The notes beneath the pieces were generated by a model. The model ran no database searches and was not told where the DNA came from. It was given only the letters and a program-made list of their open reading frames with translations. Made by a program: the position numbers and the translations under genes. From NCBI RefSeq assembly GCF_001487105.1, contig NZ_LN913000.1, positions 620,001 to 684,000 of the forward strand: DNA of 64,000 nt. Reading direction: 5' to 3'. This DNA is from Mediterraneibacter massiliensis. GTDB lineage: Bacteria; Bacillota; Clostridia; Lachnospirales; Lachnospiraceae. Positions 34,962-55,998 of this stretch are shown piece by piece. Position 1 is the stretch's first letter. The number at the start of each line of letters is the position of its first letter.

Positions 34962-34984
34962 CGTGGAAACGTTCTGACCTTTGG

Positions 34985-36721: not shown

Positions 36722-36735
36722 TTGGAGGAATGCCA

Positions 36736-37098: not shown

Positions 37099-37117
37099 TG
37101 GGTAGAGACAGAAGCGG

Positions 37118-37142
37118 GCAGGGAGGACATCTTCCTGCCCCG
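37118..37142 (+). other. Stem-loop between pilin-like and VirB6-like genes
   Basis: GGGCAGGGAGGACATCTTCC-type hairpin (GGGCAGGA-like arm pairing with TCCTGCCC), lying just before the ribosome site of the next gene. It has no T-run, so it may be an RNA-stability or translation-control element rather than a terminator. Confidence 0.45.
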
Positions 37143-37161
37143 GTAAAGGAGGTGAGACTGT

Positions 37162-38001: not shown

Positions 38002-38013
38002 GAGGAAAGAACC

Positions 38014-38493
38014 ATGCGTAAAGAAATACATGAGAAAAATGAAAATCAGGGAAACAGCGATACCCTGCCTTTCCATTGGGAATTTGGTAAGGAAGAGATC
38101 ACCCTGAAAGTGTCCAGCTATGCCTATGGAAATGGGCTTGCGATTTTGATGTACAGCCAAAGTGAAGGGGAGCTGGAATTATTTAGTGACCTGACGGCCA
38201 ATCTTCCAGGCGGGTATGGGCTGAAACCGCAGGAGGCATTTGTAAGCGGTGATTTTACCAGGGATAAGCTGGCCTTCATTCAAGAGAACAGGCTGGGAAA
38301 GGTGCTGCCGGGACAAGCCTGTTCAGGATTTGCCACCTACACCCCGGTGGCATTTGACCTTTCAAGACTCACCCGGTATGACCGGGAAGGGGTGGAAGAA
38401 TTTTGCAGACAATGGGGGCTGGATATTCCAAAAGAACAGGAAAAAGTCCAAGGGAAGCCGACAGGAAAAAAGAAAAAAGAAAGAGAGAGATAG
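38014..38493 (+). CDS. DUF4313-like ICE protein
   Basis: A 159-aa soluble protein with FHWEFGKEEITLKVSSYAYGNGLAILMYSQSEGELELFSDLTANLPGG and a lysine/glutamate tail. This beta-rich pattern is common to DUF4313 proteins in transfer operons. Starts after GGAGGAAAG, 12 bases past the VirB6-like gene. Function unknown. Confidence 0.65.
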   Translation: MRKEIHEKNENQGNSDTLPFHWEFGKEEITLKVSSYAYGNGLAILMYSQSEGELELFSDLTANLPGGYGLKPQEAFVSGDFTRDKLAFIQENRLGKVLPGQACSGFATYTPVAFDLSRLTRYDREGVEEFCRQWGLDIPKEQEKVQGKPTGKKKKERER

Positions 38494-38499
38494 AAGTAT

Positions 38500-38946
38500 A
38501 TGGAAGTAAAAATGAATAAAGAGATCCGCAACTATCAGGAGTCCATGTTTATGGGACTGAACCTGCGCCAGTGTATTTTCTCCCTGCTTGCCATCGCTGT
38601 GGCGGTAGGGATTTATTTTGGCCTGGGAAGCTATGTGGGACAGGAAATGACCGGGTGGCTGTGCATCTTAGGGGCTGCCCCTTTCGCAGCCTGTGGTTTC
38701 TTCCAGTACCATGGCATGAATGCGGAGCAGTTTGCCTGGGCGTATATCAAGTCTGAATTTTTATACCCCAAGCGCCTGCTGTTTCAGAGTGAGGACCTGT
38801 ACCATGCCTGCATGGAAGAAACGCTGGCCTTGGGAGAAAAGAGCCAGGGGGATGGCGCAGCCCTTATGAAAAAAAGAGAACAGCGGGCAAGGAAGAAACG
38901 GATGAAACAGAAAAAGAAAACGGGAAGGAGTGGTGCGTTTGATTAA
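38500..38946 (+). CDS. PrgI-family membrane protein
   Basis: VirB3-like subunit of Gram-positive T4SS (148 aa). Two adjacent helices (LRQCIFSLLAIAVAVGIYFGLG and GWLCILGAAPFAACGFFQYHG) are followed by a cytoplasmic tail with MNAEQFAWAYIKSEFLYPKRLLF, the classic PrgI signature, and a basic end. It overlaps the VirB4 gene by 17 bases, the usual PrgI-VirB4 coupling. Confidence 0.88.
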   Translation: MEVKMNKEIRNYQESMFMGLNLRQCIFSLLAIAVAVGIYFGLGSYVGQEMTGWLCILGAAPFAACGFFQYHGMNAEQFAWAYIKSEFLYPKRLLFQSEDLYHACMEETLALGEKSQGDGAALMKKREQRARKKRMKQKKKTGRSGAFD

Positions 38947-41269
38947 AACCTTACAACAGGCATTGAAAATGGACCGGGAGAAGTTCAAAGTCCCAAGGTC
39001 TGTCCAGCAGGCGATCCCGATCCAGCGGATCTGGCCAGATGGGGTGTTCCAGTCCGGGACAAAATTTTCCAAGACCTTCCGGTTTTCCGATATCAACTAT
39101 GCCATTGCAAGCAAAGAGGATAAGACAGAAATGTTCTTGGATTACAGTGAACTGTTAAATGCTTTAGATTCCGGTGCGGCGGCAAAGATCACTTTAAATA
39201 ACAGAAGGATCAATAAAGAAGAGTTTGAAGCCTCTCTGTTGTTGCCGATGAAAGAGGACGGGTTGGATGAATACCGAAAGGAATACAACGAAATGCTGTT
39301 ATCCAAGGTCAGCGGCACCAATAACAGCATCTATCAGGAACGGTATCTGACAGTCAGTGTCCATAAAAAGAACATCAATGAGGCAAGAACCTATTTTGCG
39401 CGTGTGGGAACGGATATCATCACCCATCTGAGCAAGCTGTCCTCCATTGGGGAAGAACTGGATGCGGAACAGAGGTTACAGATCTTCCGGGATTTCTTCC
39501 GGGCAGATGAACCCCAGTGCGTTCCCTTTGATATGAAGGCTTTTGCTAAAAAGGGGAGCAGCTTCAAGGACTGGATCTGTCCCCAGTCCATGGAGTTTTC
39601 CAAAGACTGCTTCAAGATCAATGAACGGTTTGGGTGGGTGCTGTATATGCAGGATTATGCCAGTTATGTCAAGGATGACATGATCTCGGAGCTGTGCGAT
39701 CTAAGCCGGGACTTGATGTTGTCCATTGATATCCTCCCGGTACCCACAGACGAAGCGGTGCGTGAGATTCAGAACCGTCTGCTTGGTGTGGAGACCAATG
39801 TGACCAACTGGCAGAGACGCCAGAATGCCAACAATAACTTTTCCGCCATTGTGCCTTATGATATGGAACTGCAAAGAAAGGAAACCAAAGAGATGCTGGA
39901 TGACCTGACCACCAGGGACCAGCGGATGATGTTCGGCATCCTCACCATGGTACATATGGCAGACAGCAAGAAACAGTTGGATTCGGATACGGAGAGTATC
40001 CTGTCGGTGGCAAGAAAGCACTTGTGTCAGATGACAACCTTGAAATGGCAGCAAGTGGATGGACTCAATACGGTACTGCCTTATGGCATCCGCAAGATCA
40101 ATGCCCTTCGTACCCTGACCACAGAGTCTACCGCAGTGCTGATCCCCTTCCATACTCAGGAGATCATGCAGCCGGGAGGTATCTATTATGGGCAGAATGC
40201 GGTGAGCAAAAATATGCTGGTGGCAGACCGGAGGAAGTTATTGAATGGAAACTCCTTCCGATTGGGTGTCAGCGGTTCGGGAAAGAGTTTCTCCGCAAAA
40301 GAAGAGATCGTGGATCTTGCCCTGTCTACGGAAGATGACATCCTCATTTTAGATCCGGAGTCGGAATTCGGTTCTTTGGTGGAAGCGCTGAACGGGGAAG
40401 TGATCTCCATTTCTGCAACGTCCCATACCCATCTGAATGCGCTGGATATGGACTCTGCCTATGGCAATGACAAGAATCCGTTGATTGAGAAGTCGGAATT
40501 TATCCTGTCCCTGTTTGAACAGTTAGTGGGTGCTGGAAATCTGTCCGCCAAGGAAAAATCCATCCTGGACCGCTGTACCGCAGATGTGTACCGGGAATAT
40601 ATCCGAAGCGGTTATAAAAGCGAAGTACCGACCTTGAAAGATCTGTACCGACAGCTCATGCTCCAGCCGGAAGAGGAAGCCAGGGGGCTTGCCTTGTCTT
40701 CGGAGTTGTTTATCAACGGAAGCCTAAATACCTTCGCCCAGAAAACCAATGTAAATACGAAGAATCGTATCATTGCCTATGATATCCGGGAACTGGGAGA
40801 GCAGCTCATGCCCCTGGGGATGCTGGTCACCTTGGACAGCATCTTCAACCGGGTGATCCAGAATTGGAAGAAAGGAAAGACTACCTGGATCTTTGCCGAT
40901 GAGTTTTATCTGTTGTTCCGCTATCAGTACAGTGCGGACTTTTTCTATCGGCTCTACAAGAGGATCCGTAAGTACCATGGATTTGTCACAGGTTTAACGC
41001 AGAATGTGGAGGAACTTTTGAAGTCGGATACGGCAAGACTGATGCTGGCAAATAGTGAGTTTTTGATCCTTTTAAACCAGGCGACCACAGACCGGGACGA
41101 ACTGGCATCCCTTTTAAACATTTCCGAGAACCAGTTATCCTATATCACCAATGTAGGCGCAGGGAAAGGGCTGATCCGCTGTTCCGGAAATCTTGTGCCA
41201 TTTGAGAACAGTTTCCCGAAGAACACGAAGCTGTACCGCTTGATGACAACAAAACCAGGGGAATGCTAG
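38930..41269 (+). CDS. VirB4/TraE-like conjugation ATPase
   Basis: Energises T4SS assembly and substrate transfer. The 779-aa protein has an N-terminal CagE/TrbE-like half (residues 1-400), Walker A GVSGSGKSFSAKEE near residue 445, ILDPESEFG nearby, Walker B TWIFADEFYLLF near 650 and a C-terminal arginine-finger segment. The start is a GTG at 38930 or 38933, inside the prgI frame. Full length, no defects seen. Confidence 0.93.
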   Translation: MVRLIKTLQQALKMDREKFKVPRSVQQAIPIQRIWPDGVFQSGTKFSKTFRFSDINYAIASKEDKTEMFLDYSELLNALDSGAAAKITLNNRRINKEEFEASLLLPMKEDGLDEYRKEYNEMLLSKVSGTNNSIYQERYLTVSVHKKNINEARTYFARVGTDIITHLSKLSSIGEELDAEQRLQIFRDFFRADEPQCVPFDMKAFAKKGSSFKDWICPQSMEFSKDCFKINERFGWVLYMQDYASYVKDDMISELCDLSRDLMLSIDILPVPTDEAVREIQNRLLGVETNVTNWQRRQNANNNFSAIVPYDMELQRKETKEMLDDLTTRDQRMMFGILTMVHMADSKKQLDSDTESILSVARKHLCQMTTLKWQQVDGLNTVLPYGIRKINALRTLTTESTAVLIPFHTQEIMQPGGIYYGQNAVSKNMLVADRRKLLNGNSFRLGVSGSGKSFSAKEEIVDLALSTEDDILILDPESEFGSLVEALNGEVISISATSHTHLNALDMDSAYGNDKNPLIEKSEFILSLFEQLVGAGNLSAKEKSILDRCTADVYREYIRSGYKSEVPTLKDLYRQLMLQPEEEARGLALSSELFINGSLNTFAQKTNVNTKNRIIAYDIRELGEQLMPLGMLVTLDSIFNRVIQNWKKGKTTWIFADEFYLLFRYQYSADFFYRLYKRIRKYHGFVTGLTQNVEELLKSDTARLMLANSEFLILLNQATTDRDELASLLNISENQLSYITNVGAGKGLIRCSGNLVPFENSFPKNTKLYRLMTTKPGEC

Positions 41270-41287
41270 TAAAAAAGATCTTTTTGA

Positions 41288-41321
41288 GGGTGCTGCTGAA
41301 CGTTCTTCGGCAGCATTCTTT
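41288..41321 (+). terminator. Hairpin after VirB4
   Basis: TGCTGC (41291-41296) pairs with GCAGCA (41310-41315), with further pairing inside, followed by TTCTTTT. It may separate VirB4 from the next transcription unit or act as a partial terminator. Confidence 0.55.
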
Positions 41322-41340
41322 TGGGAAGGAGGGAATGTAA

Positions 41341-42141
41341 ATGGAAGAAGGAAAAACAGTGGAAAGCCAGGAAAGGAGAGGACCGCTTCGAGAGCAGGAC
41401 AGTATCCGGGCGTTACTGGAGCTTTTGGAACAACAGGGCATGGAACAGGAAAAAGGGGATGTGATCCGCATGGCAGATTATATTGATTCCATGGAAATGC
41501 AGTTAGGAACCGTCTTGAAGGAACTGGGAGAGGTGAAGAAGCAACTGGGCGTGATGCAGGAAAGCAAGGTCAAGCTCTTTGCAGTGAATACGATCCAGAA
41601 AGCAGAACATCAGGTGAAAACACTTCGCTTTCAAGTGGGAGAATGGAAACGAAAGTTTGTGGAACGGACAGAACAGGCAGTGTTTGATTTTAAAGAAAAG
41701 GGAAAAGATGCCCTTGCCTCTGCGGTAAAAGGAATGCACCTTACCCAAGGCTTACAAAAGCTGCAGTCTTCCCTACATACGGTCATGCTGTCGATGGATC
41801 AGAAGATTGACCGTCTGGGGAGCATGGCGGAGGAACTGCACGTTGCCAAAGGGCATCTGAAAAACGCATTTTTGGAAATGAACGGAAAAGATACCGCAAA
41901 GATCACAGAGCGAAATCCGGAACAGGGGATCATCTTTCAAACCCAGAAGGTGTTATTCCAATCCATGCGGAGCATCCATAAGCTGGAACAAAAAACAGAG
42001 CGATTGCAGCAGCAGATCGGGAAGCTGGAAGAGAGACAAGGAAAACAGGCATCTTTAAAAGATACCTTGCAGGAGCTTCGGCAGGAAACAGCACCCCGTC
42101 AGCTTGGGAAAAAAGAAAAACAGAAGGCAGCGATCCGATAA
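41341..42141 (+). CDS. DUF6674-like coiled-coil protein
   Basis: A 266-aa soluble protein that is mostly alpha-helical. It starts with RALLELLEQQGMEQEKGDVIRMADYIDSMEMQLGTVLKELGEVKKQLG, the pattern I associate with DUF6674 of Tn1549-like elements, and ends in a long Gln/Glu/Lys coiled coil. GGAAGGAGGG precedes the ATG. Function unknown; location between VirB4 and the wall hydrolase suggests a transfer role. Confidence 0.7.
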   Translation: MEEGKTVESQERRGPLREQDSIRALLELLEQQGMEQEKGDVIRMADYIDSMEMQLGTVLKELGEVKKQLGVMQESKVKLFAVNTIQKAEHQVKTLRFQVGEWKRKFVERTEQAVFDFKEKGKDALASAVKGMHLTQGLQKLQSSLHTVMLSMDQKIDRLGSMAEELHVAKGHLKNAFLEMNGKDTAKITERNPEQGIIFQTQKVLFQSMRSIHKLEQKTERLQQQIGKLEERQGKQASLKDTLQELRQETAPRQLGKKEKQKAAIR

Positions 42142-42171
42142 AGGGGAGTTTTCTGAAGGGAGGTGAGAGCC

Positions 42172-42519
42172 ATGAAAGAAGAAACAACCATTACCTTTCT
42201 TGCTTCGGAGTGCGGGGAGTTCCATGAAATGGGAGAATGCATCGAATGCACATCTTTAAAAGAAGCGTTCCGGCATTACCAGAGATTTTGCAAGCGTTCC
42301 CCTCAGATGGTTCCGTCTTTGGAGTTTTCCCTGCACCATGCAGACGATCCGCTGTATAACGAGGGAGAATATCCATTAGCAACCGGGGAGAAGGGAAAAG
42401 AGTTATTGTCCTATGTTCCCTATTATGCCAATCATCCGTTGGTGCAGGAAGCGGTAAGGGAACTGGAAAAGCTGGAAGAACAGCAGAAGAGACAAAAGAA
42501 ACAGAGTATGGAACGGTAA
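42172..42519 (+). CDS. Hypothetical ICE protein, 115 aa
   Basis: Small protein (KEETTITFLASECGEFHEMGECIECTSLKEAFRHYQRF) resembling the LPD-type domains found in large polyvalent element proteins; the family is not certain. The ATG at 42172 follows GGGAGGTGAGAG. It lies directly before the wall-hydrolase gene. Confidence 0.6.
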   Translation: MKEETTITFLASECGEFHEMGECIECTSLKEAFRHYQRFCKRSPQMVPSLEFSLHHADDPLYNEGEYPLATGEKGKELLSYVPYYANHPLVQEAVRELEKLEEQQKRQKKQSMER

Positions 42520-42541
42520 TGTGATACAGGGAGGTGTGTGT

Positions 42542-44236
42542 TTGAAAGACATCAAAGAGAAGGTACGGGATAAGAACCCGAAGATCCGCAATCCTGCCTC
42601 CCGGCTTCCCAAAGAACTGGTGCGTTCTGCCATGCTGGAAACGAAAGAGAAGTCCCGGATGGTGGCAGACAAGGTGGGAAGAGAAACCGGAGAGGAATCT
42701 CCGGTGGAATACGCTGGAAACCGGATAGAACGGGCGGAACAGCGGGCTGGAAAGGAAAGCGCTTCTGTCGCCTATCATGGTGGAAAGAAGCTGGCAGTGA
42801 AAACTTATGAGAAGATAAAAGAGCAGAGGCAAAGAGAAGCCGTTATAGCCACGTTGGACAGCGAAACAGGAAGCGGTGGAACATCTGGACAGACAAGAAC
42901 AAAGAAAGGGCGCACAGGAGCCGGAAGGAGCATCAAGATCAAACCAGAAGCAGAGAAAACGGTCAAGGAGGCCGGAAACCGGACAGTGAAAACAGCGCCC
43001 CGTATGGTGAAAGCTTCCCCGGTTTCTTCTCAAAAGGTGAAAACCCAGGCAATCTTGCAAAAAAAGCAGGCATTCCAATCCATGAGGGCAGCCAGGGAAG
43101 CAAAACGGGCTGCCATGCGCTCTGTCCAGACAGCCAAGCAAAGCAAAAAGACAGCACAGGCAACAGCAAAAGGGATAAAAGCTATGGCAGAAGCAGCGGC
43201 CCATGCAGTAAAGGCAGCGTTTGCAGCGTTGATGGCAGGAGGAGGTACCGTATTTGTGATCTTGATCCTCATTGTGGGGATCATTGGCGGTGCTGCGTTT
43301 ATCGGGAGTTCCCAGAGCAGCGAGCCGCTGAGTGCAGAAGTCCTGGCCCATACCCCGGCGATCCAGCGGTATGCCAGGGAATTTGGAATCTCGGAATATG
43401 TCCCTGTCATCCAGGCAATCATGATGCAGGAGAGTGGCGGAAGGGGAACGGATCCCATGCAGGCCAGCGAGTGTCCGTATAATACCCAGTATCCCAATAC
43501 GCCCGGTGCGATCCAGGATGCCGATTATTCTATCAAGGTGGGCGTACAGTATTATGCGGATTGTGTCCGGGAAGCCGGATGTGAAAGCCCACAGGATATG
43601 GACAAGCTAAAACTTAGTTTACAGGGCTATAATTACGGGAATGGGTATATCTCATGGGCAATCCGAAACCATGGAGGCTATAGCGAGGCCAATGCGCTGC
43701 AGTTTTCCCAGGAACAGGCAGCCGCCCATGGGTGGTCAGGTTATGGCGATCCAGAGTATGTACCCCATGTGCTTCGGTATTATTCTGGCGGGGGATTGTT
43801 TGCCGGACTTTTTGGAAATGGGCAGCTTGTGACCATTGCGAAAAGCCAGTTGGGGAACGAAGGCGGCCAGAAGTTCTGGTCGTGGTGGGGATTCACAGAG
43901 CGACAAGAATGGTGTGCCTGTTTCGTGTCCTGGTGTGCAGACCAGGCAGGACTCATTCAAAGCGGTGCGGTGCCAAAATTTTCTGTTTGTACGGACGGGA
44001 AGAACTGGTTTCAAAACCAAGGAAGATGGCAGGGGGCAGGTAGTATGCCAAGTCCCGGTGCGATCATCTTTTTTGACTGGGAGCATGATGGAACGTGCGA
44101 CCATGTGGGAATCGTGGAACGCTGTGACGGAACAACCGTCTATACCATAGAAGGAAACTCCGGGGATGCGGTAAAGGAGAGAAGCTATTCGATTAGTTCC
44201 GATTCCATTATGGGATATGGAATGGTGGTTTATTAA
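42542..44236 (+). CDS. Bifunctional lysozyme-like/CHAP cell-wall hydrolase of the T4SS
   Basis: A VirB1/CwlT-type enzyme that opens peptidoglycan for the conjugation channel. About 564 aa from the TTG at 42542 (GGGAGGTG 5 bases upstream). A long basic N-terminal part (residues 1-215) is followed by one membrane helix (VFVILILIVGIIGGAAFIG, near 230-250). A lysozyme-like domain has IQAIMMQESGGRG with the catalytic Glu and continues to GYNYGNGYISWA. The C-terminal CHAP domain has EWCACFVSWCADQAG (Cys), CDHVGIVERCDG (His) and TIEGNSG (Asn). This two-domain form is typical of Gram-positive ICEs. Confidence 0.9.
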   Translation: MKDIKEKVRDKNPKIRNPASRLPKELVRSAMLETKEKSRMVADKVGRETGEESPVEYAGNRIERAEQRAGKESASVAYHGGKKLAVKTYEKIKEQRQREAVIATLDSETGSGGTSGQTRTKKGRTGAGRSIKIKPEAEKTVKEAGNRTVKTAPRMVKASPVSSQKVKTQAILQKKQAFQSMRAAREAKRAAMRSVQTAKQSKKTAQATAKGIKAMAEAAAHAVKAAFAALMAGGGTVFVILILIVGIIGGAAFIGSSQSSEPLSAEVLAHTPAIQRYAREFGISEYVPVIQAIMMQESGGRGTDPMQASECPYNTQYPNTPGAIQDADYSIKVGVQYYADCVREAGCESPQDMDKLKLSLQGYNYGNGYISWAIRNHGGYSEANALQFSQEQAAAHGWSGYGDPEYVPHVLRYYSGGGLFAGLFGNGQLVTIAKSQLGNEGGQKFWSWWGFTERQEWCACFVSWCADQAGLIQSGAVPKFSVCTDGKNWFQNQGRWQGAGSMPSPGAIIFFDWEHDGTCDHVGIVERCDGTTVYTIEGNSGDAVKERSYSISSDSIMGYGMVVY

Positions 44237-44302
44237 AAACATAAAAATAGAGAGTAATCGGATTGTAGAGGATGGGGAAGAATGTTATAATCTTTTGAAA
44301 GA

Positions 44303-44330
44303 GGGCAGGGAAAATACCCTGCCTGTTAAG
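44303..44330 (+). terminator. Hairpin ending the transfer operon
   Basis: GGCAGGG at about 44304 pairs with CCCTGCC near 44321, loop AAAATA, followed by TGTTAAG. It is the likely end of the transfer transcript, before the ATPase gene. Confidence 0.5.
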
Positions 44331-44376
44331 AATAGAAAATGTATTATAAAAAGTGGTTGTATGGGGGAGTGCTTGG

Positions 44377-45093
44377 ATGAATGATTTGTATATACAGGGA
44401 GTGCATATAGATTGGAATAAAATTCCAGTAAATAGTTATTTGAGAGAAATTGATGCGATAAAAGGTTTGGAAGAACTGATTTTTCATAATTCGATTACTT
44501 TTTTTGTTGGAGAAAACGGAAGTGGAAAATCAACCTTACTGGAGGCACTTGCAGTTGCCTGTGGGTTTAACCCGGAAGGTGGGACAAAGAATTATATTTT
44601 TTCCACATATGATTCCCATTCGCAATTGCATGAAGCTATACGTGTTGTAAAGGGATACCGTCAAGCAAAATGGGGATATTTTCTGAGAGCAGAGAGTTTT
44701 TATAATGTGGCGACAAAAGAGGAAGAATATGCAGACTGGGAACACCCATCAGAAAAATACCATGAAAAATCACATGGAGAGAGTTTTCTTGCACTTGCTC
44801 AAAATTATCTGAAACCGAATGGCGTGTATTTTTTTGATGAGCCAGAGGCGGCATTATCGCCGCAAAGACAGTTGACATTGTTGATGGAAATACATGCATG
44901 TGCCAGACAAGGATCCCAGTTTATAATCGTTACACATTCTCCAATTTTGCTTGGGATTCCAGAAGCCCAGATTATAGCATTTGATGAAGAAGGGATACAT
45001 GAGTGTAAATATGAAGAAACAGAAAGTTATATGGTAACAGAAATGTTTATTAACAATAGAGAACAGTTGCTTCGCAGACTTCTTTCTGAATGA
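44377..45093 (+). CDS. AAA/ABC-type ATPase (OLD-like stand-alone)
   Basis: A 238-aa ATPase starting at ATG 44377 after GGGGGAG. It has Walker A VGENGSGKSTLLEALAV, the signature-like HGESFLALAQNYL, Walker B VYFFDEPEAALSPQRQL and the H-loop FIIVTHSPILLGIP: a complete ABC nucleotide-binding unit with no transporter partner. Such stand-alone ATPases near mobile-element ends are often defence- or repair-related. The neighbours are an unknown membrane protein and a MmcQ-like protein, which may be cargo. Confidence 0.8.
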   Translation: MNDLYIQGVHIDWNKIPVNSYLREIDAIKGLEELIFHNSITFFVGENGSGKSTLLEALAVACGFNPEGGTKNYIFSTYDSHSQLHEAIRVVKGYRQAKWGYFLRAESFYNVATKEEEYADWEHPSEKYHEKSHGESFLALAQNYLKPNGVYFFDEPEAALSPQRQLTLLMEIHACARQGSQFIIVTHSPILLGIPEAQIIAFDEEGIHECKYEETESYMVTEMFINNREQLLRRLLSE

Positions 45094-45123
45094 AAAAAAG
45101 ATAAGCATGAGGAGAAAAGAAAA

Positions 45124-45675
45124 ATGAACAATAATCGAGGCGGAGAAAGAACGATTTATGATGAATCCCTGTTCAGAATATTTCTTTGGTCAGGATTTCC
45201 AATATTTATGATTTTGCTGTTTGCCTGTGTGGCAATTAGCGGGATTGTCTTCATTTATAGGCATTCAGATCCAGAAGGAGTAAAAATTATTATTTTTTGT
45301 TTTGCGGTTTTAATTCCAGTTTCTTATGGAAGCCCATTTGTTAGTTTATTTAAGGCGTGGAAACAACAACATAAGATTGGGATTTTTTGGAAAGAGAGGA
45401 CAGATCATCATCTTCCAGAATGGAAAAGAGATTGGTATTTGATTTGCGACAGAGGTGGATTTATTCTTGAACATAGAAGTTACATAAAACGGATTATTGG
45501 CTGCCGTGAGGAAACGGAAAGAGCAGATCATGCACGAGGAAAAGTTTATTATATAACATTTGAGGATATTGATGGGAAAAAACACACATTGAAATTTTCT
45601 TATGAGTCGTGGGCTTTGGAATTTCAGAAGTGGTTTGAAAAGCAGACATATGAAAAAGAAAATGTAGAACTCTAG
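45124..45675 (+). CDS. Membrane protein with YcxB-like tail
   Basis: A 183-aa protein with two membrane helices (about residues 18-45 and 55-75) and a C-terminal cytoplasmic beta-rich domain (DWYLICDRGGFILEHRSYIKRIIG; KVYYITFEDIDGKKHTLKF). The layout resembles YcxB-like proteins. Function unknown. Low G+C codon use relative to the transfer genes. Confidence 0.6.
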   Translation: MNNNRGGERTIYDESLFRIFLWSGFPIFMILLFACVAISGIVFIYRHSDPEGVKIIIFCFAVLIPVSYGSPFVSLFKAWKQQHKIGIFWKERTDHHLPEWKRDWYLICDRGGFILEHRSYIKRIIGCREETERADHARGKVYYITFEDIDGKKHTLKFSYESWALEFQKWFEKQTYEKENVEL

Positions 45676-45734
45676 GAATAAAAGGAGTGCTTTAAAATAT
45701 AAAAATAAATAAGTATGATTAGGAAGTGAAACTG

Positions 45735-46091
45735 ATGGATCGTAAAGATGTATTTGAATATGTAAAAAAACAATATGGAACAGTACCGGAATATCTTTGG
45801 AAAGAATCCCCAGAAAGTGCGGTACTTCGTCATAAAAACGGGAAATGGTATGCAGTGTTGATGCAGGTTAAAAAATCTAAGTTAGAACTAGAAGGAGAGG
45901 GCACGGTAGATATTATTAATGTGAAGTGTGAACCGGATATGGTTGGAGTTTTGATAGAGACCTATGGTTTTCTTCCAGGATATCATATGAATAAGGAACA
46001 TTGGATTACGATGCTGATGGACGGAACTGTAAGTGAAGCGAAGATTTTAGATTTTTTGGATATGAGTTACGATTTAATTGATAGAAGCTGA
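45735..46091 (+). CDS. MmcQ/YjbR-family protein
   Basis: A 118-aa protein of the MmcQ/YjbR fold (CyaY-like DNA-binding domain). Visible features: KKQYGTVPEYLWKESPESAVLRHKNGKWYAVLM, NVKCEPDMVGVLIETYGFLPGYHMNKEHWITMLMDG and a final SYDLI. The ATG at 45735 is preferred to an upstream GTG at 45726. It stands before the serine-recombinase remnant. The role of this family is poorly known. Confidence 0.85.
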   Translation: MDRKDVFEYVKKQYGTVPEYLWKESPESAVLRHKNGKWYAVLMQVKKSKLELEGEGTVDIINVKCEPDMVGVLIETYGFLPGYHMNKEHWITMLMDGTVSEAKILDFLDMSYDLIDRS

Positions 46092-49024: not shown

Positions 49025-49834
49025 TTAGCTTCCGCTTTTTGTCTTAGGCGTTTCAATATAATAACCCTGTTCCTTGCTCTTTAGTAACTGGTGGTCGATA
49101 ACCACAACCTCATGGATAAAATCAACGTCCATGATTGTCAGTCCGCACAGTTCCGAGATACGAAGTCCTGTCTTTAACAGTATCAGCACATCATCATAAT
49201 ACTTGTGATACACATTGTCCGTCTTGATGAATGAGAGTAGGGCTTGTTCCTGTTCCTCTGTCAATGCGACTTTCTCTTTGGTATCATTTTCTAGGACTTC
49301 ACTTAACTTGAAATCAAAGGGATTTTTCCTTACGCAATCGTCTTGTATGGCGATATAGAATGACGCTTTTAACGAGCGTTTATGGTTGTTAATGGTATTG
49401 TAGGAAAAACCTTTCTCTTTCATGCGTAACGCCCATTCTTTAGCATCAGAGGGCTTGATTGTATCAATGCTCCTAGCACCCAACTTGTCCTCTTTCAATA
49501 ACCGCAAGAGCTGTTCCCGTTGTTTCATTGTGCTTTTCTTCACATTTTCCCTTTGTGCGTTCTGTTTGGCATAGAGTTGACAAAGCGTCATTTTCTTGCC
49601 TGTGCTGTTGATACCGTCCTCAATATCCCGTCTTATCTGTTGTTCCAGTTCTCGAAGTGAGGGTTTTACCCGTTTTCCCTTTGGTGTCGGGTCTGTGGGT
49701 GTCAATCTCCAAGCATACACATATTTTGTGTTTCCAAATGCGTCTACATATTTATATAAGTATTTTCCGTCTGTTCGTTGGCTCTCTCCAGTATGCAGGA
49801 TACGACCTTTGTTATCCCGTCTTTTTTCTTTCAT
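49025..49834 (-). pseudogene. int: Tn916-type tyrosine integrase, C-terminally truncated
   Basis: The Int of Tn916-like elements catalyses excision and insertion. The N-terminal arm-binding domain (KRRDNKGRILHTGESQRTDGKYLYKYVDAFG) and the core start (LYAKQNAQRENVKKST; SFYIAIQDDCVRKNPFDF) closely follow Tn916 Int. The first catalytic Arg is present in LLKTGLRISELCGL, but the frame ends at TPKTKSGS, so the HxLRH box and the catalytic Tyr are missing (269 aa against about 400). The product cannot recombine. The cut point near 49027 is a junction with the lipoprotein region. Confidence 0.88.
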
Positions 49835-49861
49835 GGTGTCTGCTCCTTTCCTTGTTGGAAA

Positions 49862-49876
49862 GAGCCTTGATATGAC
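49862..49876. repeat. 15-base inverted copy with 53039-53053
   Basis: GAGCCTTGATATGAC here is the exact complement of GTCATATCAAGGCTC at 53039-53053. The two copies lie upstream of int/xis and at the opposite end of the element remnant, so they may belong to its recombination ends. Confidence 0.6.
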
Positions 49877-49912
49877 TTGTGTTCATCATAACACATACAA
49901 GGCTCATTTGCA

Positions 49913-50116
49913 CTAGATAGCGTCCAATTTGTCAATAACCTGTTCAAACTGTCGGCGTTTAATCTGTATGCGGTTGCCATTCATAATGAGCCAGCCAGCG
50001 TCCTTGTTTTCCTCTGCCAAGCGTCTTAACTTGTTTTCTCCGATACGGAAATATTTTGACGCTTCTTCAATGGTAAGGGTATATTTTTCCCATACGGGAA
50101 TATCGTTGTTATTCAT
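49913..50116 (-). CDS. xis: Excisionase (Xis) of Tn916 type
   Basis: A 67-aa winged-helix DNA-bending protein that directs Int towards excision. [56 protein letters not shown] is near to Tn916 Xis throughout. It is followed on the minus strand by int after 78 bases, the normal order, and its ATG overlaps the stop of the rep gene. Confidence 0.9.
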
Positions 50117-51126
50117 CAGATACCTCCTTTCCCATGTTTCGTGTCATACTGGATATAGGGGATAAGGTCGATGCGGTTTATCCTCTGTAAATGGGCGGAT
50201 AATTTACTGGAAAGGGAATTACTGTATTTTGCCTTATCAAGCATAGTTCCTACTTTTTCCAGTCCACCTAATGCGTCATGTTCTTCCAAAAAATAAAAAC
50301 TTTTGACAGCGGAAATCACGCCACCCTCTGTGAGCCATTGCTGTGTTTCCTCAAGGAAATTATGCTGTTTGGGTACTTGCAGTTTTAAGACTTCCACAGC
50401 CCCTAAAAAGCGTTCCCAAAACCGACATGTTTTCCACCTGCTTTTATTACTTTCGTTTCTGTTTGGTACGACAAAACGTAGGTTGTTTGCCAGCAGTCCG
50501 AAAGCCAGTTCCCCAAGTTCCAGCGGTCTGTCCTTGAATGTCATGGCAAAAGCATGAGACTTATCATCACGCAGTTGCATTTCTGTCCGTTTCCAACTGC
50601 CGACTTCATCAAGTGTCTTATTATGTTTTGAACAGACTTCCTTATCTTTATCATAAAAGCGGTAGGACAATCCCGATTTACCAGCACCGATATAAACGGT
50701 CTTTGCGGTGTCGAAATAATCAAACTTGCTTTCGTCAAAATGGTAGCCCTCACTATTCGAGATAAATTCCTCTTTTTCGCATTTCTTCTTTATCTGCTCT
50801 ATGGTAAAGAATGGCTTTTCGTTCTTATCATCAATGGCAATATCAAGTCTTGTGAAATGGAAATTATCCAGTCCGTATCTTCGCTCACAGCGTCGGAACA
50901 TATCCCCAAAGGTATAATTCCTACTGTCGAGAATACGGAAAATATCATCACAACCTCTGCCAGTCATAACAAGATAACAGCCTAGCCCCTGTGGGTTGTC
51001 CTCTGTCTTTCTTGCGTCCCCCGATACATAAATATCTCCAATCTGCCAGCGTGCTTGATAAGTCTTGAATTTTATCGTTGCTGGATAAACATTGAAAATG
51101 TCAGTCGGTAAATCTAAAATGTGCAT
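50116..51126 (-). CDS. Replication initiation factor/MobT-type relaxase (Rep_trans)
   Basis: A 336-aa homologue of the Orf20 (MobT) protein of Tn916, which nicks oriT and supports rolling-circle replication of the circular form. Typical segments: [58 protein letters not shown] and the later [19 protein letters not shown]. Normal length. It lies next to xis and faces a region with many hairpins, the expected place for its origin. Confidence 0.88.
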
Positions 51127-51594
51127 GATTACATCTTCAGCGGTTGCCGTTTCAAATACAATGCTGATGTAATCAATCTTAACGGATAAATTTTTGTGTG
51201 TAGTTATAGTGCATTGCTCCTTTCGTATGCCCCGTTTTTTTGCGGGGTAAAAATCGTGTTTTTTCCTTTATTTATCACAGTTTCTAGGTACTATGACATG
51301 TATACGCAGGGCGGTGTTACATATACGCCCTATGCGTTCGCCTAAAGGCGTTCCCTTTCTTCCTGTGCCTGATCCGTTCTTAACGCTCACGAGCCTTGTA
51401 AGGCTCGTGGCTAAACGGAACAGCTCCAGTCAGAAACCTTATTTTCTGTCTGATAGTCCATGCTTATTCATGCTATCAAAATGAAAATACATCTTTTCTA
51501 TGCTTACTCAAGCGTGTGATTGACCCTAGCGTGCTTAATCACTCTACCTGATACGATAATAACGCCATTAGAATTACTTGTCAAGAAGTTTTTG
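51127..51594. other. Gene-free, hairpin-rich region (candidate origin)
   Basis: No gene is supported here. Hairpins seen: CCCCG/CGGGG around a T-rich loop (51230-51247); GGGCG/CGCCC (51309-51330); CGCCT-AA-AGGCG (51339-51350); a 10-bp stem CACGAGCCTT/AAGGCTCGTG (51388-51409) inside a CCGTT/AACGG pair; CAGAAA/TTTCTG (51431-51448); GATAG/CTATC (51452-51477). Such a series beside a Rep_trans gene suits a double- or single-strand origin. Confidence 0.55.
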
Positions 51595-51623
51595 TTGACT
51601 TTTAGATATAGATTAAGTATGAT
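51595..51623 (+). promoter_or_regulatory. Promoter of the XRE regulator
   Basis: TTGACT at 51595-51600, a 17-base spacer, TATGAT at 51618-51623. It lies 50 bases ahead of the XRE start and faces away from rep. Confidence 0.75.
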
Positions 51624-51673
51624 ATGCTTATAAATACCAAGAAAAGCAACGAAAGGAGCGGTTATACTAAGTT

Positions 51674-52309
51674 ATGGAGCATTATGAAAAGAAAATCAGT
51701 TTCTTAGGAGAGAACATACAAACCATAAGAAAACACAGAGGAATGAAACAACAGGAACTGGCGGACAAAATCGGTATCAATATGCAGAGCCTTTCCAAGA
51801 TTGAACGTGGTGTGAATTATCCTACCTTTGATACATTAGAAAAGATAATGGACGTGCTGGGTGTAACGCCTAATGAATTGTTATCGGGAGAATGGAAGTA
51901 TGTTAATCAAGCCGAAAAGGAAGTCTGTCAGTTTTTAAGAATTGAAGAACGATTAAATGCAGAACTAAAACATGGGCATTATGACAACTTCTTTGACAGC
52001 GAAGAAGAATGGCTGGAATATGAGTTGGAAAAGTTACGGGAATATATTACCGACTACATCAACGGGAAAAGCATTGTAGCGTCCGACCTTTACCCAATCA
52101 AAGAATTTATCCAGCATTTGAAGTTTCAAAAACTGTTAGACCGCTATGATGATTTATACAGCATGGATATGTTTGGGGAAAGCATAGAAGGACATAAATA
52201 TAGGACACCTTATCAAGTCGTAAAAATGATAAATCCCAATTCAAAAGAAGATATGGCATTATTACGGGAAGTATTGAAAAATAATCATTTTGATGATGAG
52301 GACGAATAA
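51674..52309 (+). CDS. XRE-family regulator with C-terminal helical domain
   Basis: A 211-aa regulator. The HTH at residues 10-65 (LGENIQTIRKHRGMKQQELADKIGINMQSLSKIERGVNYPTFDTLEKIMDVLGVTPNELL) is a classical XRE domain; the rest is acidic and helical (SEEEWLEYELEKLREYITDYI). It is divergent from the rep/xis/int genes and is probably the control protein of this element. GAAAGGAGCGG lies ahead of the ATG. Confidence 0.85.
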   Translation: MEHYEKKISFLGENIQTIRKHRGMKQQELADKIGINMQSLSKIERGVNYPTFDTLEKIMDVLGVTPNELLSGEWKYVNQAEKEVCQFLRIEERLNAELKHGHYDNFFDSEEEWLEYELEKLREYITDYINGKSIVASDLYPIKEFIQHLKFQKLLDRYDDLYSMDMFGESIEGHKYRTPYQVVKMINPNSKEDMALLREVLKNNHFDDEDE

Positions 52310-52339
52310 CTTTCTTCCTCTTTGTAGAAGATACAGAAA

Positions 52340-52410
52340 ACAAAAAGCCCAGTAAAGAGTGCAAAGCACCACCAATGGTGGCAAGGCTCTTGACAGGACT
52401 TTTTCTTTTC
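52340..52410. terminator. Imperfect long hairpin, possibly bidirectional terminator
   Basis: AAAAAGCCCAGT and GGACTTTTTC flank an imperfect stem centred on CCACC-AAT-GGTGG (near 52369-52381), so T-runs exist on both strands. It follows the XRE gene by about 35 bases. Confidence 0.5.
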
Positions 52411-52569
52411 TGTTGTGGGTAATCAAGAGGAAAAAAGGAAAGGTGTGATGTCCTACTCAAGTTTTTTATCTTGAACGCATAAAAAGATTGAAAGAGGTGT
52501 TTGTTTCCAGTATAATGTTTTTGTATAGAAGTAAGAATTGAGATTTTTTGAAAGAAAGGGGTGACAGTC

Positions 52570-52665
52570 ATGTTCACACATTGTTACGCTTGCGACAGAC
52601 AGACAAGTAAATTCTGCCCTTTTTTCAATTCTATCAATAAGAAACAGAACGCACAGGTTGCCTAG
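52570..52665 (+). CDS. Possible 31-aa Cys-rich peptide
   Basis: Starts MFTHCYACDRQTSKFCPFF after AAAGGGGTGAC. The three cysteines with CxxC spacing could bind a metal. Its last codons overlap the left arm of a terminator. Rest of the 52310-52724 interval holds only the two hairpins noted. Confidence 0.4.
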   Translation: MFTHCYACDRQTSKFCPFFNSINKKQNAQVA

Positions 52666-52693
52666 TTATAAGGGGGGGAGTTTGTGCGTTTTT
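52648..52693 (+). terminator. Terminator after the Cys-rich peptide
   Basis: AACGCACA (52648-52655) pairs with TGTGCGTT (52683-52690), followed by TTTTTC. Confidence 0.65.
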
Positions 52694-52733
52694 CTATGCA
52701 GAAATTTTATGAAGAACAAGGAGTGTGTTATTT

Positions 52734-52976
52734 ATGCGAAAAAATCTACAGTATATATTTTTTAATCTACTATTATCTCTTCGGGGAATTATAAGGCTTG
52801 TTTTTAGAACTATTACCCTACTTACTATTTTGGGTGCTTGTATAATGCTGAGTCAGGATAAATCGTTAAGCTTATCATGCTTTATAGTAGGTATTATTAG
52901 CTGGCTTATTACGATTTATTATGATAAACTACTTTTTAAAATAAAGCCACATGACATGGATCTTTATTTAAGTTGA
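52734..52976 (+). CDS. Small membrane protein, about 80 aa
   Basis: A hydrophobic protein beginning at ATG 52734 or an upstream TTA-adjacent start; RBS-like AAGGAG lies upstream. Two helices are likely: LRGIIRLVFRTITLLTILGACIML and LSCFIVGIISWLITIYY. Not recognised. It is the last gene before the element boundary and is followed by a terminator. Confidence 0.55.
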   Translation: MRKNLQYIFFNLLLSLRGIIRLVFRTITLLTILGACIMLSQDKSLSLSCFIVGIISWLITIYYDKLLFKIKPHDMDLYLS

Positions 52977-52997
52977 TTTATAATATTTTTTCATGCA

Positions 52998-53031
52998 AAA
53001 GGACACCTTCTAATTCGGTGTCCTTTTCAAA
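52998..53031 (+). terminator. Terminator after the small membrane protein
   Basis: AAAGGACACC pairs with GGTGTCCTTTT around the loop TTCTAATTC. Confidence 0.8.
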
Positions 53032-53038
53032 TTGTATT

Positions 53039-53082
53039 GTCATATCAAGGCTCATTCAATCGTGGTAATTTCGTGGTAAATT
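53039..53082. repeat. Candidate element end: inverted copy plus Int-arm-like direct repeats
   Basis: GTCATATCAAGGCTC at 53039-53053 is complementary to 49862-49876. It is followed by two direct copies of TCGTGGTAA (53060-53068 and 53071-53079). Spaced TGGTAA-type direct repeats resemble the arm sites bound by the N-terminal domain of Tn916 Int, so this is a likely end of the small element. Confidence 0.45.
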
Positions 53083-53238
53083 AAATATTTTCTTATATTT
53101 CAAAGTACTTGAAAGTGTAGTATTTATGCTGATAATCGAAAATTAGATATAAAATTTTACAAAAATAGATACCTAAGTTAAACTGTCATTGCTGACCGGC
53201 CAGTTAGCAAATGAACAGAATAAGGAAGGTATCTACAA

Positions 53239-54528
53239 ATGAATTCTACACAAAACAAGAAGATTGAGCAAGTAAAAGAAACAACAATGATTGTCGGCAT
53301 TGATGTTGGCAGTGAACAGCATTATTTCAGAGCTTTTAACTGGAGAGGTATCGAGCTTACCAGAAAGCCCGTAGCGTTTTCAAACTCTATGGAGGGATTC
53401 AACAGTTTTTACAATACGATTATGGAACTGATGCAGAAAAGTGAACTTGAAGAGGCACTGGTAGGAATAGAGCCAACCGGTCATTACTGGTTTGATCTTG
53501 GGCAGTTCATGGGCGAAAAGAACATAAAGTTTGTGATGGTAAATCCGCACCATGTGCATAAGACCAAAGAGTTAGATGACAACAGCCCATCTAAAAATGA
53601 CAGGAAAGATCCCCGTATTATTGCAGGGCTTGTAAGGGATGGAAGGTATTTTTATTCATATATGCCGACAGGTGTATATGCAGAACTGCGGAATGCGTCA
53701 AACCGCCGGTTTGTGCTTGTAGAAGAACAGACAAGGGCGAAGAACCGTCTGCAGAAATGGATTGCGGTGTATTTTCCGGAATATAAGGGGATATATACTA
53801 GAATAGATGCCAAGGGAGGGCTGCTGGTGTTAAAACAGGCACCGACTCCTGAGGAGATAACAAAGCTTGGAGAAGAAGGTATCATAAAGATATGGAAAGA
53901 TGCAAAACTCCGAGGGAGCGGGCATAAGAAGGCAATGAAGATCCTGAATGCGGCAATGAGAAGCATAGGGTTAAAAGCAGGTCTTACAGAAGCCCGGATG
54001 GAGATACAGGATCTGATAGAGGATTATGAACTCCAGACAAGACGCCTTGAACGGGTCAATGACTTGATCAAAGAACTGTGCCAGCAGGTCAGGTATGCGG
54101 ATAAGCTGCTTGAAATAAAAGGCATAGGAATAACAACAGTAGCTGGTTTTATAGCAGAAGTCGGTGATATCACGCGCTTCGATAGCACGAAAGAACTTCA
54201 GAAACTGGCAGGATTGGAACTGGTGGCAGATAGTTCCGGTAAGCACAATGGAAGGACAAAGATAAGCAAAAGAGGGCGCAAGCGTCTCCGTTATCTTCTT
54301 TTCGAGGCTGCGATATCGGTAGTGGGAAAGAATGAAGAATTCAAAGAAATCCACAGGTATTATACCACCAGAGAAAAGAATCCCTTAAAAAAGATGCAGT
54401 CACTGATAGCTGTAGCGTGTAAGCTGATAAGAGTATTCCATGTGATTCTTACCAAGGGAGTCAGCTATGATGCATCAAAGATGTTGAAAGATATCCAGCA
54501 TCCTGGAGAGCAGTTAAAGGCTGCGTAA
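53239..54528 (+). CDS. IS110-family DEDD transposase
   Basis: A 429-aa recombinase. The N-terminal RuvC-like domain has the acidic residues in VGIDVGSEQHY, VGIEPTGHYW and KNDRKDPRIIAGL; the middle is a coiled coil; the C-terminal Transposase_20 domain has LLEIKGIGITTVAGFIAEVGD and ELVADSSGKHNGRTKISKRGRKRLRYLL with the serine nucleophile candidate in DSSGK. The frame is full length with GGAAGG before the start, so the element may be active. This family is guided by a bispecific bridge RNA encoded in its non-coding end. Confidence 0.93.
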   Translation: MNSTQNKKIEQVKETTMIVGIDVGSEQHYFRAFNWRGIELTRKPVAFSNSMEGFNSFYNTIMELMQKSELEEALVGIEPTGHYWFDLGQFMGEKNIKFVMVNPHHVHKTKELDDNSPSKNDRKDPRIIAGLVRDGRYFYSYMPTGVYAELRNASNRRFVLVEEQTRAKNRLQKWIAVYFPEYKGIYTRIDAKGGLLVLKQAPTPEEITKLGEEGIIKIWKDAKLRGSGHKKAMKILNAAMRSIGLKAGLTEARMEIQDLIEDYELQTRRLERVNDLIKELCQQVRYADKLLEIKGIGITTVAGFIAEVGDITRFDSTKELQKLAGLELVADSSGKHNGRTKISKRGRKRLRYLLFEAAISVVGKNEEFKEIHRYYTTREKNPLKKMQSLIAVACKLIRVFHVILTKGVSYDASKMLKDIQHPGEQLKAA

Positions 54529-54539
54529 CAGAGAAATAA

Positions 54540-54830
54540 AGAACAACCATAATGATTACAGGAAGCGTCCACCGAAAGGTGCTGTAATCGGAGTGTTTGG
54601 ATCAGTAATGAAAGTACAAAGAATGAGCTGGTAGCCGGCAGGGATTTTCTCCAGAGGGCATGACCCTGATGAGTAGCTAAGCTGGCACCCTGGTTATGGA
54701 CAGGCAGAACGAAGGAAGTGAGGACCCACCGTAAGGAGGATGATCCTGTTGGACATGAGAGGTGAGCTGCCATATAGGGATGGGTACACAGCGAGGCCAT
54801 TTAGAACGGATAGTGATGACGTTTTATTTG
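54540..54830 (+). ncRNA. Candidate bridge RNA of the insertion sequence
   Basis: Downstream of the transposase, before the right end, no gene is seen but folding is strong. GATTACAG (54554-54561) pairs with CTGTAATC (54582-54589) and encloses CACC-GAAA-GGTG (54570-54581) with a GNRA loop. Further stems around 54630-54780 (for example CAGGG with CCCTG; AGGAT/ATCCT) enclose unpaired loops that could be target- and donor-binding guides. Position in the 3' end agrees with IS1111-group bridge RNAs. Limits are approximate. Confidence 0.55.
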
Positions 54831-54942
54831 GGGCATCCATTATTACTATATATCTGCCCTGTATGAGGTAAAGATCACTCCATAACCTTAGTTCTATTCA
54901 ATGACAGGTATCAAAAAGTATTGAATTTATTGAAAAAAACAC

Positions 54943-55998
54943 TTGATTATATGGAAAGGAGATTGTATCTACATCTTAGAAGATGATATACTAAAAAAGG
55001 ATTCTTTTAAAGAGGAATCTCATGCATTCATAATCCCATTTGCAGAAAGAAAGAAGACTGAAAGTAAACATAAAAAAATTTGGAAGAAGATGGTTGCTGT
55101 AGCAGCTGCATGTGCACTTTTTGTTACTTCTTTTGCAGTATTATCAAAACCGGAAAAGGCTTATGCTATGGTATCTGTAGATGGAGAAAAAACAGTTGAA
55201 GTGGTTTTAAATCAAAAAAATAGAGTAAAAGAGGCAGATTCCAAGAATACTTCTCTTACACAGGAAGAGGAGAAAGCGATAAAAGGTGAAAAAGTAGAGA
55301 CAATCAAGAATTATTTTTCCCAGGATCTTTTGGAAAAAGAAACTATTATTGTGGGATATGCCTTTTTGGAGGATGAATCTGAAGAAGAACGTGCAGCATT
55401 ACAGAGACGCCTGGAAAAAACATTTGGTACAGATCATTTGCTTTATTTAGCAGGCGATAAAGAGGATGTTGAAAATGCGAAAAAAGCAGGCAAGAGTTTG
55501 GGAATTTATTTGGCGGAGCAGATATTAGCTGGAGAGAATTTCCATAAAGTGGTAAATGAAGCCACGGAAGAAGAAGTATTGGAATTGCTGGAAAAGAATC
55601 CTTGCTTTATGACAGATCAAGCATTAAAAGAAATGATTCAGCAAAAGTTATCTGATTACGAAGATGCGGATGATCTTGAAAAAGAAGAGAATGCGGATCG
55701 TGATGACGAGCAGAATGAGGATATTTTAGAACCGCAAAAAGAAAGGAATGAGGAACAAGAAGAATCTGCTTCGGGAGAGAAATTAGAAGAAGTTGGTGAG
55801 TCAAAGGAATCAGATGAGCTGGATACAACAAATGAACCAGAATCTCAAGTTGAGGAACATGAGTCAGATACACAAGATATTTCAGACGAACCAGCAGAGC
55901 CTGCCGAGGAAATAGATTCATATGAAATGGAATCAGAAGATGATTCGACGGAGAGCGAAGGAGAAGAATCAGAGATTTCAGGTGAAGCAGATGAATAA
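54943..55998 (+). CDS. RsgI-like anti-sigma protein, N-terminally truncated
   Basis: A membrane protein (351 aa from a TTG). One helix near residues 50-68 (MVAVAAACALFVTSFAVLS) is followed by AYAMVSVDGEKTVEVVLNQKNRVKEADS, which matches the extracellular RsgI middle domain, and a long acidic Glu/Ser-rich tail. The cytoplasmic anti-sigma domain (about 50 residues) that should precede the helix is only partly present, there is no ATG with a ribosome site, and in-frame stops lie just upstream. The insertion sequence ends 30 bases before it, so the 5' end was probably removed by that insertion. No cognate sigma-I gene is in the window. Confidence 0.6.
   Translation: MIIWKGDCIYILEDDILKKDSFKEESHAFIIPFAERKKTESKHKKIWKKMVAVAAACALFVTSFAVLSKPEKAYAMVSVDGEKTVEVVLNQKNRVKEADSKNTSLTQEEEKAIKGEKVETIKNYFSQDLLEKETIIVGYAFLEDESEEERAALQRRLEKTFGTDHLLYLAGDKEDVENAKKAGKSLGIYLAEQILAGENFHKVVNEATEEEVLELLEKNPCFMTDQALKEMIQQKLSDYEDADDLEKEENADRDDEQNEDILEPQKERNEEQEESASGEKLEEVGESKESDELDTTNEPESQVEEHESDTQDISDEPAEPAEEIDSYEMESEDDSTESEGEESEISGEADE

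What the first reader, a model, noticed from the sequence alone, without database searches (positions are those of the whole stretch)
54529..54912. Candidate bridge RNA in the 3' end of the IS110/IS1111-like element
About 370 non-coding bases after an intact DEDD transposase fold into stems, the first with a GAAA tetraloop inside a longer outer helix, and further stems enclose internal loops. The subterminal inverted repeats (CTGTCATTG) and the placement fit IS1111-group bridge RNAs, which carry separate loops pairing with donor and target DNA. It would be a new member whose guide loops could be read from the insertion site.
Basis: partly seen in the sequence, partly recalled or inferred. Interest (0 to 1): 0.58.

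Follow-up and report, generated by a model that had tools for sequence, protein, structure and literature searches.

The report
Bridge RNA of a truncated transposon
The DNA after this jumping gene encodes a guide RNA whose loops read the insertion site and the element's own ends; close relatives use the same RNA to insert into the ribosome-binding sites of genes, while this copy has lost its left end and probably cannot move.

Summary
The bridge-RNA call is right in substance; several details are wrong. Homologous copies fix the true ends. The right end is 54958, not 54912. The left terminus is lost: a Tn916-type element end abuts it at about 53157. CTGTCATTG is an arm of a transposase-leader hairpin, not a terminal repeat. 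The RNA (about 54554-54838) has a 5' stem-loop, a target loop, a donor loop and a third hairpin, supported by covariation in 28 sequences. Guide-to-site matching shows function by comparison. The left target guide equals the left flank of each copy's own site (67 sites, 4.54 of 6 bases against 3.18 shuffled, 0 of 10,000). Copies with altered loops sit at correspondingly altered sites. The donor guides change with the element ends. Most relatives carry an AAGGAG guide and sit in Shine-Dalgarno sequences: 42 of 57 sister-group right flanks have a start codon and reading frame just downstream, against 16% at random, and one empty site is shown. The window's lineage is retargeted to TGAATAG|GAGAAA. 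Guide order and 3' placement match IS1111; transposase length (429 aa), tree and absence of conserved terminal repeats do not. No RNA or transposition was measured.

The parts
53158..54958 (+). Remaining IS element: left terminus lost, right end intact up to and including the core AG (54957-54958)
   Evidence: Alignment of flanks of homologous copies; left terminus AGCTTCCTGTATAAT absent from own genome at <=3 mismatches; left boundary approximate
53039..53157 (.). Terminal stretch of a Tn916-type mobile element abutting and replacing the IS left end
   Evidence: 91% identical to another place in the own genome and found in Enterococcus plasmids without the IS
53166..53235 (+). Leader hairpin of the transposase mRNA covering its Shine-Dalgarno; CTGTCATTGCTGAC (53183-53196) pairs with GTTAGCAAATGAACAG (53203-53218)
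   Evidence: Inverted repeat I1; equivalent stem with different letters in the sister group
53239..54528 (+). IS110-family DEDD transposase, 429 aa, intact
   Evidence: PF01548 and PF02371; NCBIfam NF033542 'IS110 family RNA-guided transposase' 226 bits, cut-off 140; IS621 8wt6 E 2.3e-9
54554..54838 (+). Predicted bridge RNA (ends not mapped; whole structured region)
   Evidence: Covariation in 28 sequences
54554..54589 (+).
   Evidence: Inner helix 100% paired; outer helix 61.6% paired on this MAFFT alignment, where it is misregistered in part of the sister group, with 7 of 8 pairs showing changes on both sides
54634..54686 (+). Target-binding loop: outer helix 54634-54639/54681-54686, inner helix 54655-54658/54664-54667
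   Evidence: 99.4% and 100% of cells paired, compensatory changes
54645..54652 (+). Right target guide UUUUCUCC, complementary to the top strand right of the core (predicts GGAGAAAA; window has GGAGATTG)
   Evidence: Guide/site matching 73 sites, 0 of 10,000 shuffles
54669..54676 (+). Left target guide AUGAGUAG (includes core AG); most close relatives have AUGAAUAG
   Evidence: Guide/site matching 67 sites, 0 of 10,000 shuffles; type-level test 1 of 720 in close group
54703..54771 (+). Donor-binding loop: outer helix 54703-54707/54767-54771, inner helix 54721-54724/54744-54747
   Evidence: 99.3% and 100% of cells paired; found independently by RNAalifold
54713..54718 (+). Right donor guide AGGAAG, complementary to left-end CTTCCT
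   Evidence: Changes with the left end across groups
54757..54761 (+). Left donor guide GAGAG, matches right-end GAGAG of relatives (window right end itself reads GAAAG)
   Evidence: Changes with the right end across groups
54782..54838 (+). Third hairpin domain of unknown role
   Evidence: Outer helix 94.0% and inner helix 96.9% of cells paired
54943..54948 (+). -35-like TTGATT that in intact copies would form a promoter with left-end TATAAT across the circle junction
   Evidence: 17-bp spacing in 13 of 14 copies whose two ends matched the strict patterns
49025..51126 (-). Tn916-type integrase (truncated), excisionase and MobT/Rep_trans gene of the abutting element
   Evidence: Integrase_DNA, Phage_integrase positions 3-65 of 172 only; Tn916-Xis; Rep_trans/MobT

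Best explanation
The region encodes a bridge RNA of an IS110-superfamily element. Inferred mechanism: the transposase binds this RNA. The target loop pairs with both strands of the insertion site (right guide with the top strand, left guide with the bottom strand), the donor loop pairs with the joined ends of the excised circle, and exchange occurs at a shared AG core. Shown by comparison: the ends, the AG core, helix conservation, guide-to-site matching and guide-to-end matching. Inferred from the family: transcription, processing, binding, circle formation and strand exchange. The clade's usual left guide is AAGGAG-like, so copies land in Shine-Dalgarno sequences and the right end (GGGAG or GAGAG) supplies a new one. 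The window's lineage has a changed guide (TGAATAG). The window copy lacks its left end and is probably a relic with an intact transposase and RNA template.
For: Left guide against own left flank: 67 sites, 4.54 of 6 against 3.18, 0 of 10,000; collapsed to guide types: close group 1 of 720, sister 0 of 20,000. Natural retargeting: loop UUAGGGAG/site ATAGGGAG (L028), CGUGAAAG/TGTGAAAG (L030), AGCAAUAG/TTCAATAG (L033), AGACAUAG/ATATCATAG (L034), AAUAGUAG/ATAGTAG (L102). Right guide: 73 sites, 0 of 10,000. Donor: left-end CTTCCT with AGGAAG, CATTCCT with AGGAAT in 10 of 10 third-group loci, CTTCTT with GAGAAG in 4 of 4 readable sister loci; right-end GGGAG/GAGAG/AGGAG with the same letters in the loop. 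Helix covariation. Empty site: L056 TTTTCAAGGAGGTTTTTTTCAATG against L123 TTTTAAGGAGGATTTTTCAATG. Shine-Dalgarno placement 42 of 57 against 724 of 4440 random positions.
Against: No RNA sequencing, binding or transposition data. Single-sequence folding energy is ordinary. No Rfam family matches. Some copies do not match their guide: L027 (loop AUGAAUAG, site ATAAAGGAG) and L002, L015, L101 only partly. Start-codon placement is only 6 of 18 in the close group. The window itself cannot be tested on the left side. Its right end differs from its donor guide by one base.
Confidence: 0.92

Rival explanations
1. The structured region is a conserved 3' untranslated element or cis-regulator of the transposase, and target choice is made by the protein.
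For: The region lies directly after the gene in the same direction; helix conservation alone fits any structured RNA.
Against: Nearly identical elements with different loops sit at different sites (L033/L034), and the loops change with both flanks and both ends.
Confidence: 0.04
2. Classical IS1111-group bridge RNA bounded by the CTGTCATTG repeats.
For: 3' placement and right-guide-before-left-guide order as in IS1111 (PMC11187229).
Against: Copies end about 50 bases further right; the right repeat is kept in 4 of 12 distinct close sequences; transposase 429 aa against 330-350; it branches apart from IS4321/IS5075.
Confidence: 0.02
3. The match of guide and left flank reflects shared ancestry of element families and base composition, not guiding.
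For: Copies are related and host DNA is A+T-rich; shuffles do not fully model relatedness.
Against: Type-level permutation gives 1 of 720, 0 of 20,000 and 0 of 20,000; closely related pairs differ in loop and site together.
Confidence: 0.03

Closest known systems
IS621 bridge RNA (IS110 group; PMC11208160)
   Same: 5' stem-loop, then target loop, then donor loop; left guide pairs with the bottom strand, right guide with the top strand; 2-base core inside all guides; promoter at the circle junction
   Different: RNA lies 3' of the gene, not 5'; core AG not CT; right guide precedes left guide; extra third hairpin; transposase about 100 aa longer
IS1111-group seekRNA/bridge RNA (ISEc11, ISPa11, ISKpn4; PMC11187229)
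   Same: 3' placement; top-strand match 5' of bottom-strand match
   Different: Transposase 429 aa against 330-350 aa; no conserved subterminal repeats; clade branches apart from IS4321/IS5075
IS900 (IS110 family) of Mycobacterium avium subsp. paratuberculosis (PMC8141618)
   Same: Target motif CATGNNNNNNTCTCCTT is the reverse complement of AAGGAGA-N6-CATG, i.e. Shine-Dalgarno plus start codon (passage seen; the reading as Shine-Dalgarno is mine)
   Different: Different phylum; no guide loop was linked to the motif in the passages seen

Membership tests
IS110-family RNA-guided transposase | DEDD RuvC-like domain plus Transposase_20 domain with a catalytic Ser-Gly | tested here: met
   PF01548, PF02371; NF033542 above cut-off; GLELVADSSG motif
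Bridge RNA | Conserved structured RNA with two internal loops | tested here: met
Bridge RNA | One loop matches both sides of the target site and changes with it | tested here: met
Bridge RNA | Other loop matches both element ends and changes with them | tested here: met
Bridge RNA | RNA is made and bound by the transposase; directs recombination | not testable with these tools
   Needs RNA sequencing and a transposition assay
IS1111 group | RNA in the 3' end | tested here: met
IS1111 group | Top-strand match 5' of bottom-strand match | tested here: met
   54645-54652 before 54669-54676
IS1111 group | Subterminal inverted repeats of 7-17 bp | tested here: not met
   CTGTCATTG pair not conserved on the right. 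Imperfect repeats at the true ends: L022 17 of 2000 shuffles as good, L030 66, L064 116, L054 432, L098 1986
IS1111 group | Transposase of 330-350 aa with GL-P----S/TG motif | tested here: not met
   429 aa; GLELVADSSG lacks the proline
IS110 group (IS621-like) | RNA in the 5' end | tested here: not met
   Left end of intact copies is about 120-140 bases and holds a leader hairpin

The most novel reading that the evidence does not exclude
A clade of long-transposase IS110 elements in Clostridia and other Bacillota carries a copy of the Shine-Dalgarno sequence as the guide in its bridge RNA. It thereby inserts RNA-guided into the ribosome-binding sites of genes and hands the interrupted gene a replacement site from its own right end. 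Side lineages, including the window's, have been retargeted by a few base changes in the loop.
Probability: 0.75. Interest if true: 0.65.

Novelty: new variant of a known kind. Interest (0 to 1): 0.55.

Why it matters
It links a puzzling target preference (ribosome-binding sites, already visible in the published IS900 motif) to a readable RNA guide, gives a natural series of retargeted loops with matching sites, and places a bridge RNA with IS1111-type order on a transposase outside both well-studied groups. The window copy itself is an ordinary decayed member.

Tried and rejected
Rfam search of the window and a permissive search of 53050-55000: nothing relevant. Single-sequence folding as evidence: rejected, z = 0.22. 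CTGTCATTG as terminal repeats: rejected. Hairpin 1 as donor guide: in the close group it holds ACAGGAAGC, complementary to left-end GCTTCCTGT, but this is not kept in the sister group although the end is, so it was set aside. An empty site for the L024 insertion: paralogues match only the left flank. An empty site for L060: orthologues too diverged to read the junction; L056/L123 worked. Finding the window's own empty site in its genus: no match to the right flank in the other 57 of 58 genomes. Locating the missing left end elsewhere in the own genome: none. First pair table had one helix misplaced by a text search; corrected.

Rows dropped before counts: homologues under 52% identity, or not reaching residue 415, were left out of the guide table, and 6 loci did not fit the loop pattern. 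The third group was tallied separately, without L096 in the donor tally, because its donor loop is interrupted. In one search the left ends printed for L031, L032 and the window are stray pattern hits (these loci hold no left end), and the L050 CTTCTT entry is a stray hit (its end reads CTTCCT).

Full report
What is there. The window lies in a genome of 3.07 Mb (five contigs) that holds one copy of this transposase. The gene at 53239-54528 is intact and carries both IS110-family domains; NCBIfam names the family RNA-guided. Homologues came from 58 same-genus genomes (10 of 58 matched at E <= 1e-40, 21 places), from the genome collection (80 best of 163 confirmed) and from a Lachnospira eligens plasmid. 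They fall into a close group (>70% identity), a sister group (about 53-61%) and a third group of 11 loci that I tallied apart (10 of them 49-52%, plus L087 at 55%).

True ends. Lining up copies at different host sites shows where shared sequence stops. Close and sister copies start AGCTTCCTGTATAAT (or CTTCTT in some) and end ...TATATGGAGAG or ...TATATAGGGAG. In the window the right end is CACTTGATTATATGGAAAG at 54940-54958. The window's left end is missing: 53039-53157 is the end of another element, 91% identical to a second place in the own genome and present in Enterococcus plasmids. Near it lie a Tn916-type integrase truncated after part of its catalytic domain, a Tn916 excisionase and a MobT-like gene. 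The missing terminus is nowhere in the own genome at up to three mismatches. A same-genus copy still has it (L110). The simplest history (inference) is insertion of a Tn916-type element into the left end, followed by a deletion that removed its other end.

Repeats. CTGTCATTG at 53183 pairs with CAAATGAACAG at 53208-53218 inside a hairpin that covers the transposase's ribosome-binding site. Sister copies keep the hairpin with other letters. The matching CAATGACAG at 54899 is present in 4 of the 12 distinct close sequences aligned. An imperfect inverted repeat exists at the true ends of some copies but fades across the clade.

RNA. In an alignment of 28 sequences under 93% identity (28 kept of 63 that held the region), my eight-helix structure pairs in 91.6% of cells (37-47% when slid) and has 14 pairs with changes on both sides against 8.7 in shuffles, 0 of 500. 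RNAalifold recovered the target-loop, donor-loop and third-domain inner helices by itself and added two further helices, GTCC 54566-54569 with GGAC 54698-54701 and an outward extension of the target-loop stem. The outer part of hairpin 1 is poorly registered in this alignment (61.6%). The shuffles do not remove relatedness.

Target guides. In the target loop the left guide equals the bases left of the core plus the core. Over 67 distinct sites it matches 4.54 of 6 bases outside the core, against 3.18 when flanks are shuffled (0 of 10,000). It holds in the close group (13 sites, 0 of 10,000) and in the sister group (54 sites, 0 of 10,000). The right guide, read as the reverse complement of the right flank, matches better than shuffled in all 73 sites together (0 of 10,000), in 18 close sites (20 of 10,000) and in 55 sister sites (1 of 10,000). 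Collapsed to one row per guide type, the observed pairing is the best of 720 in the close group and is not reached in 20,000 for the sister group or for all. Natural swaps are the clearest cases: L033 and L034 (76% to the window) have loops AGCAATAG and AGACATAG and sit at TTCAATAG and ATATCATAG; L028, L030 and L102 behave alike. Mismatched copies exist (L027, L002, L015, L101).

Donor guides. The 5' side of the donor loop is complementary to the left end and its 3' side equals the right end. Left-end CTTCCT goes with AGGAAG in the close and sister groups. CATTCCT goes with AGGAAT in 10 of 10 third-group loci. CTTCTT goes with GAGAAG in the 4 sister loci where both can be read, out of 7 loci with that end (L067, L078 and L097 unreadable). 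Right ends GAGAG, GGGAG and AGGAG go with the same letters in the loop. Cytobacillus (L132) and Sporomusa (L133) copies extend both patterns.

Where relatives insert. In the sister group the left flank reads AGG before core AG, and +1 is G in 53 of 57 right flanks; 42 of 57 distinct right flanks have a start codon 3-16 bases after the core with at least 40 open codons. Controls in the same host DNA: 724 of 4440 random positions, 130 of 367 AGGAG[AGT] sites and 47 of 96 A[AT]GGAGG sites. So the motif explains part, not all, of the excess. In the third group 6 of 7 readable right flanks pass the same test. An uninterrupted orthologue of the L056 site shows insertion inside AAGGAGG with only AG shared. 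The close group, which includes the window, prefers TTGAAT|AG|GAGAAA; 6 of 18 pass the start-codon test. Because sister, third-group and Sporomusa copies share the Shine-Dalgarno guide, I infer that it is the older state and the window's guide is derived; the Cytobacillus copy (L132) has yet another guide and site (GGGCAG).

Comparison with the known. IS621's RNA has a 5' stem-loop, target loop and donor loop, with the same strand logic (PMC11208160, passages and section 12 seen). IS1111 elements have the RNA in the 3' end with the top-strand match first, and IS110 elements the reverse (PMC11187229, abstract and sections 5 in part, 12 and 13 seen). The window's RNA has the IS1111 order and place. 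Its transposase (429 aa) branches apart both from IS4321/IS5075 and from ISEc20/ISSfl4/ISRhosp7, with weak support (80/75) for being nearer the former. Filing ISEc20-type elements under the IS110 group is recalled. IS900's published motif is a Shine-Dalgarno plus start codon read backwards (PMC8141618, passages seen). Searches for a published link between IS110 elements or bridge RNAs and Shine-Dalgarno or ribosome-binding sites and within the two main papers showed none in this open-access library; papers outside it were not searched.

Verdict.

Noticed in passing
window 49025-53157: Tn916-type excisionase, truncated integrase and MobT/Rep_trans gene; the element end abuts the IS left end, so a Tn916-like element probably inserted there and later lost its other end.
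   Followed up: partly
window about 27000-46000: Long + strand gene cluster with conjugation-like proteins (relaxase-like 31220-32494, coupling-protein-like 34985-36721, VirB4-like 38930-41269); looks like an integrative conjugative element (names by eye, no family search).
   Followed up: no
window 54943-55998: Open frame whose TTG start lies inside the IS right end; no Pfam or NCBIfam match. The gene downstream may have acquired or lost its start through the insertion.
   Followed up: no
window 54558-54566: Hairpin 1 of the close group holds ACAGGAAGC, complementary to nine bases of the left end, in addition to the donor guide; not kept in the sister group.
   Followed up: partly
L096 downstream of the transposase (from about 4287): The donor-loop sequence breaks off at CGAAGG and continues with a stretch that looks like a group II intron start (recalled motif), so a second element may sit in the bridge RNA.
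   Followed up: no
window 53239-54525, residues 264-378: Sub-threshold NCBIfam match to the TIGR-Tas endonuclease model (36.6 bits, cut-off 100), in line with the published link between Tas and IS110 proteins (PMC12045711, search listing only).
   Followed up: no
L110 (G012), about 1480-1560: A same-genus genome holds the start of a near-identical element with an intact left end, although no full transposase match was reported there at E <= 1e-40; possibly a fragment.
   Followed up: no
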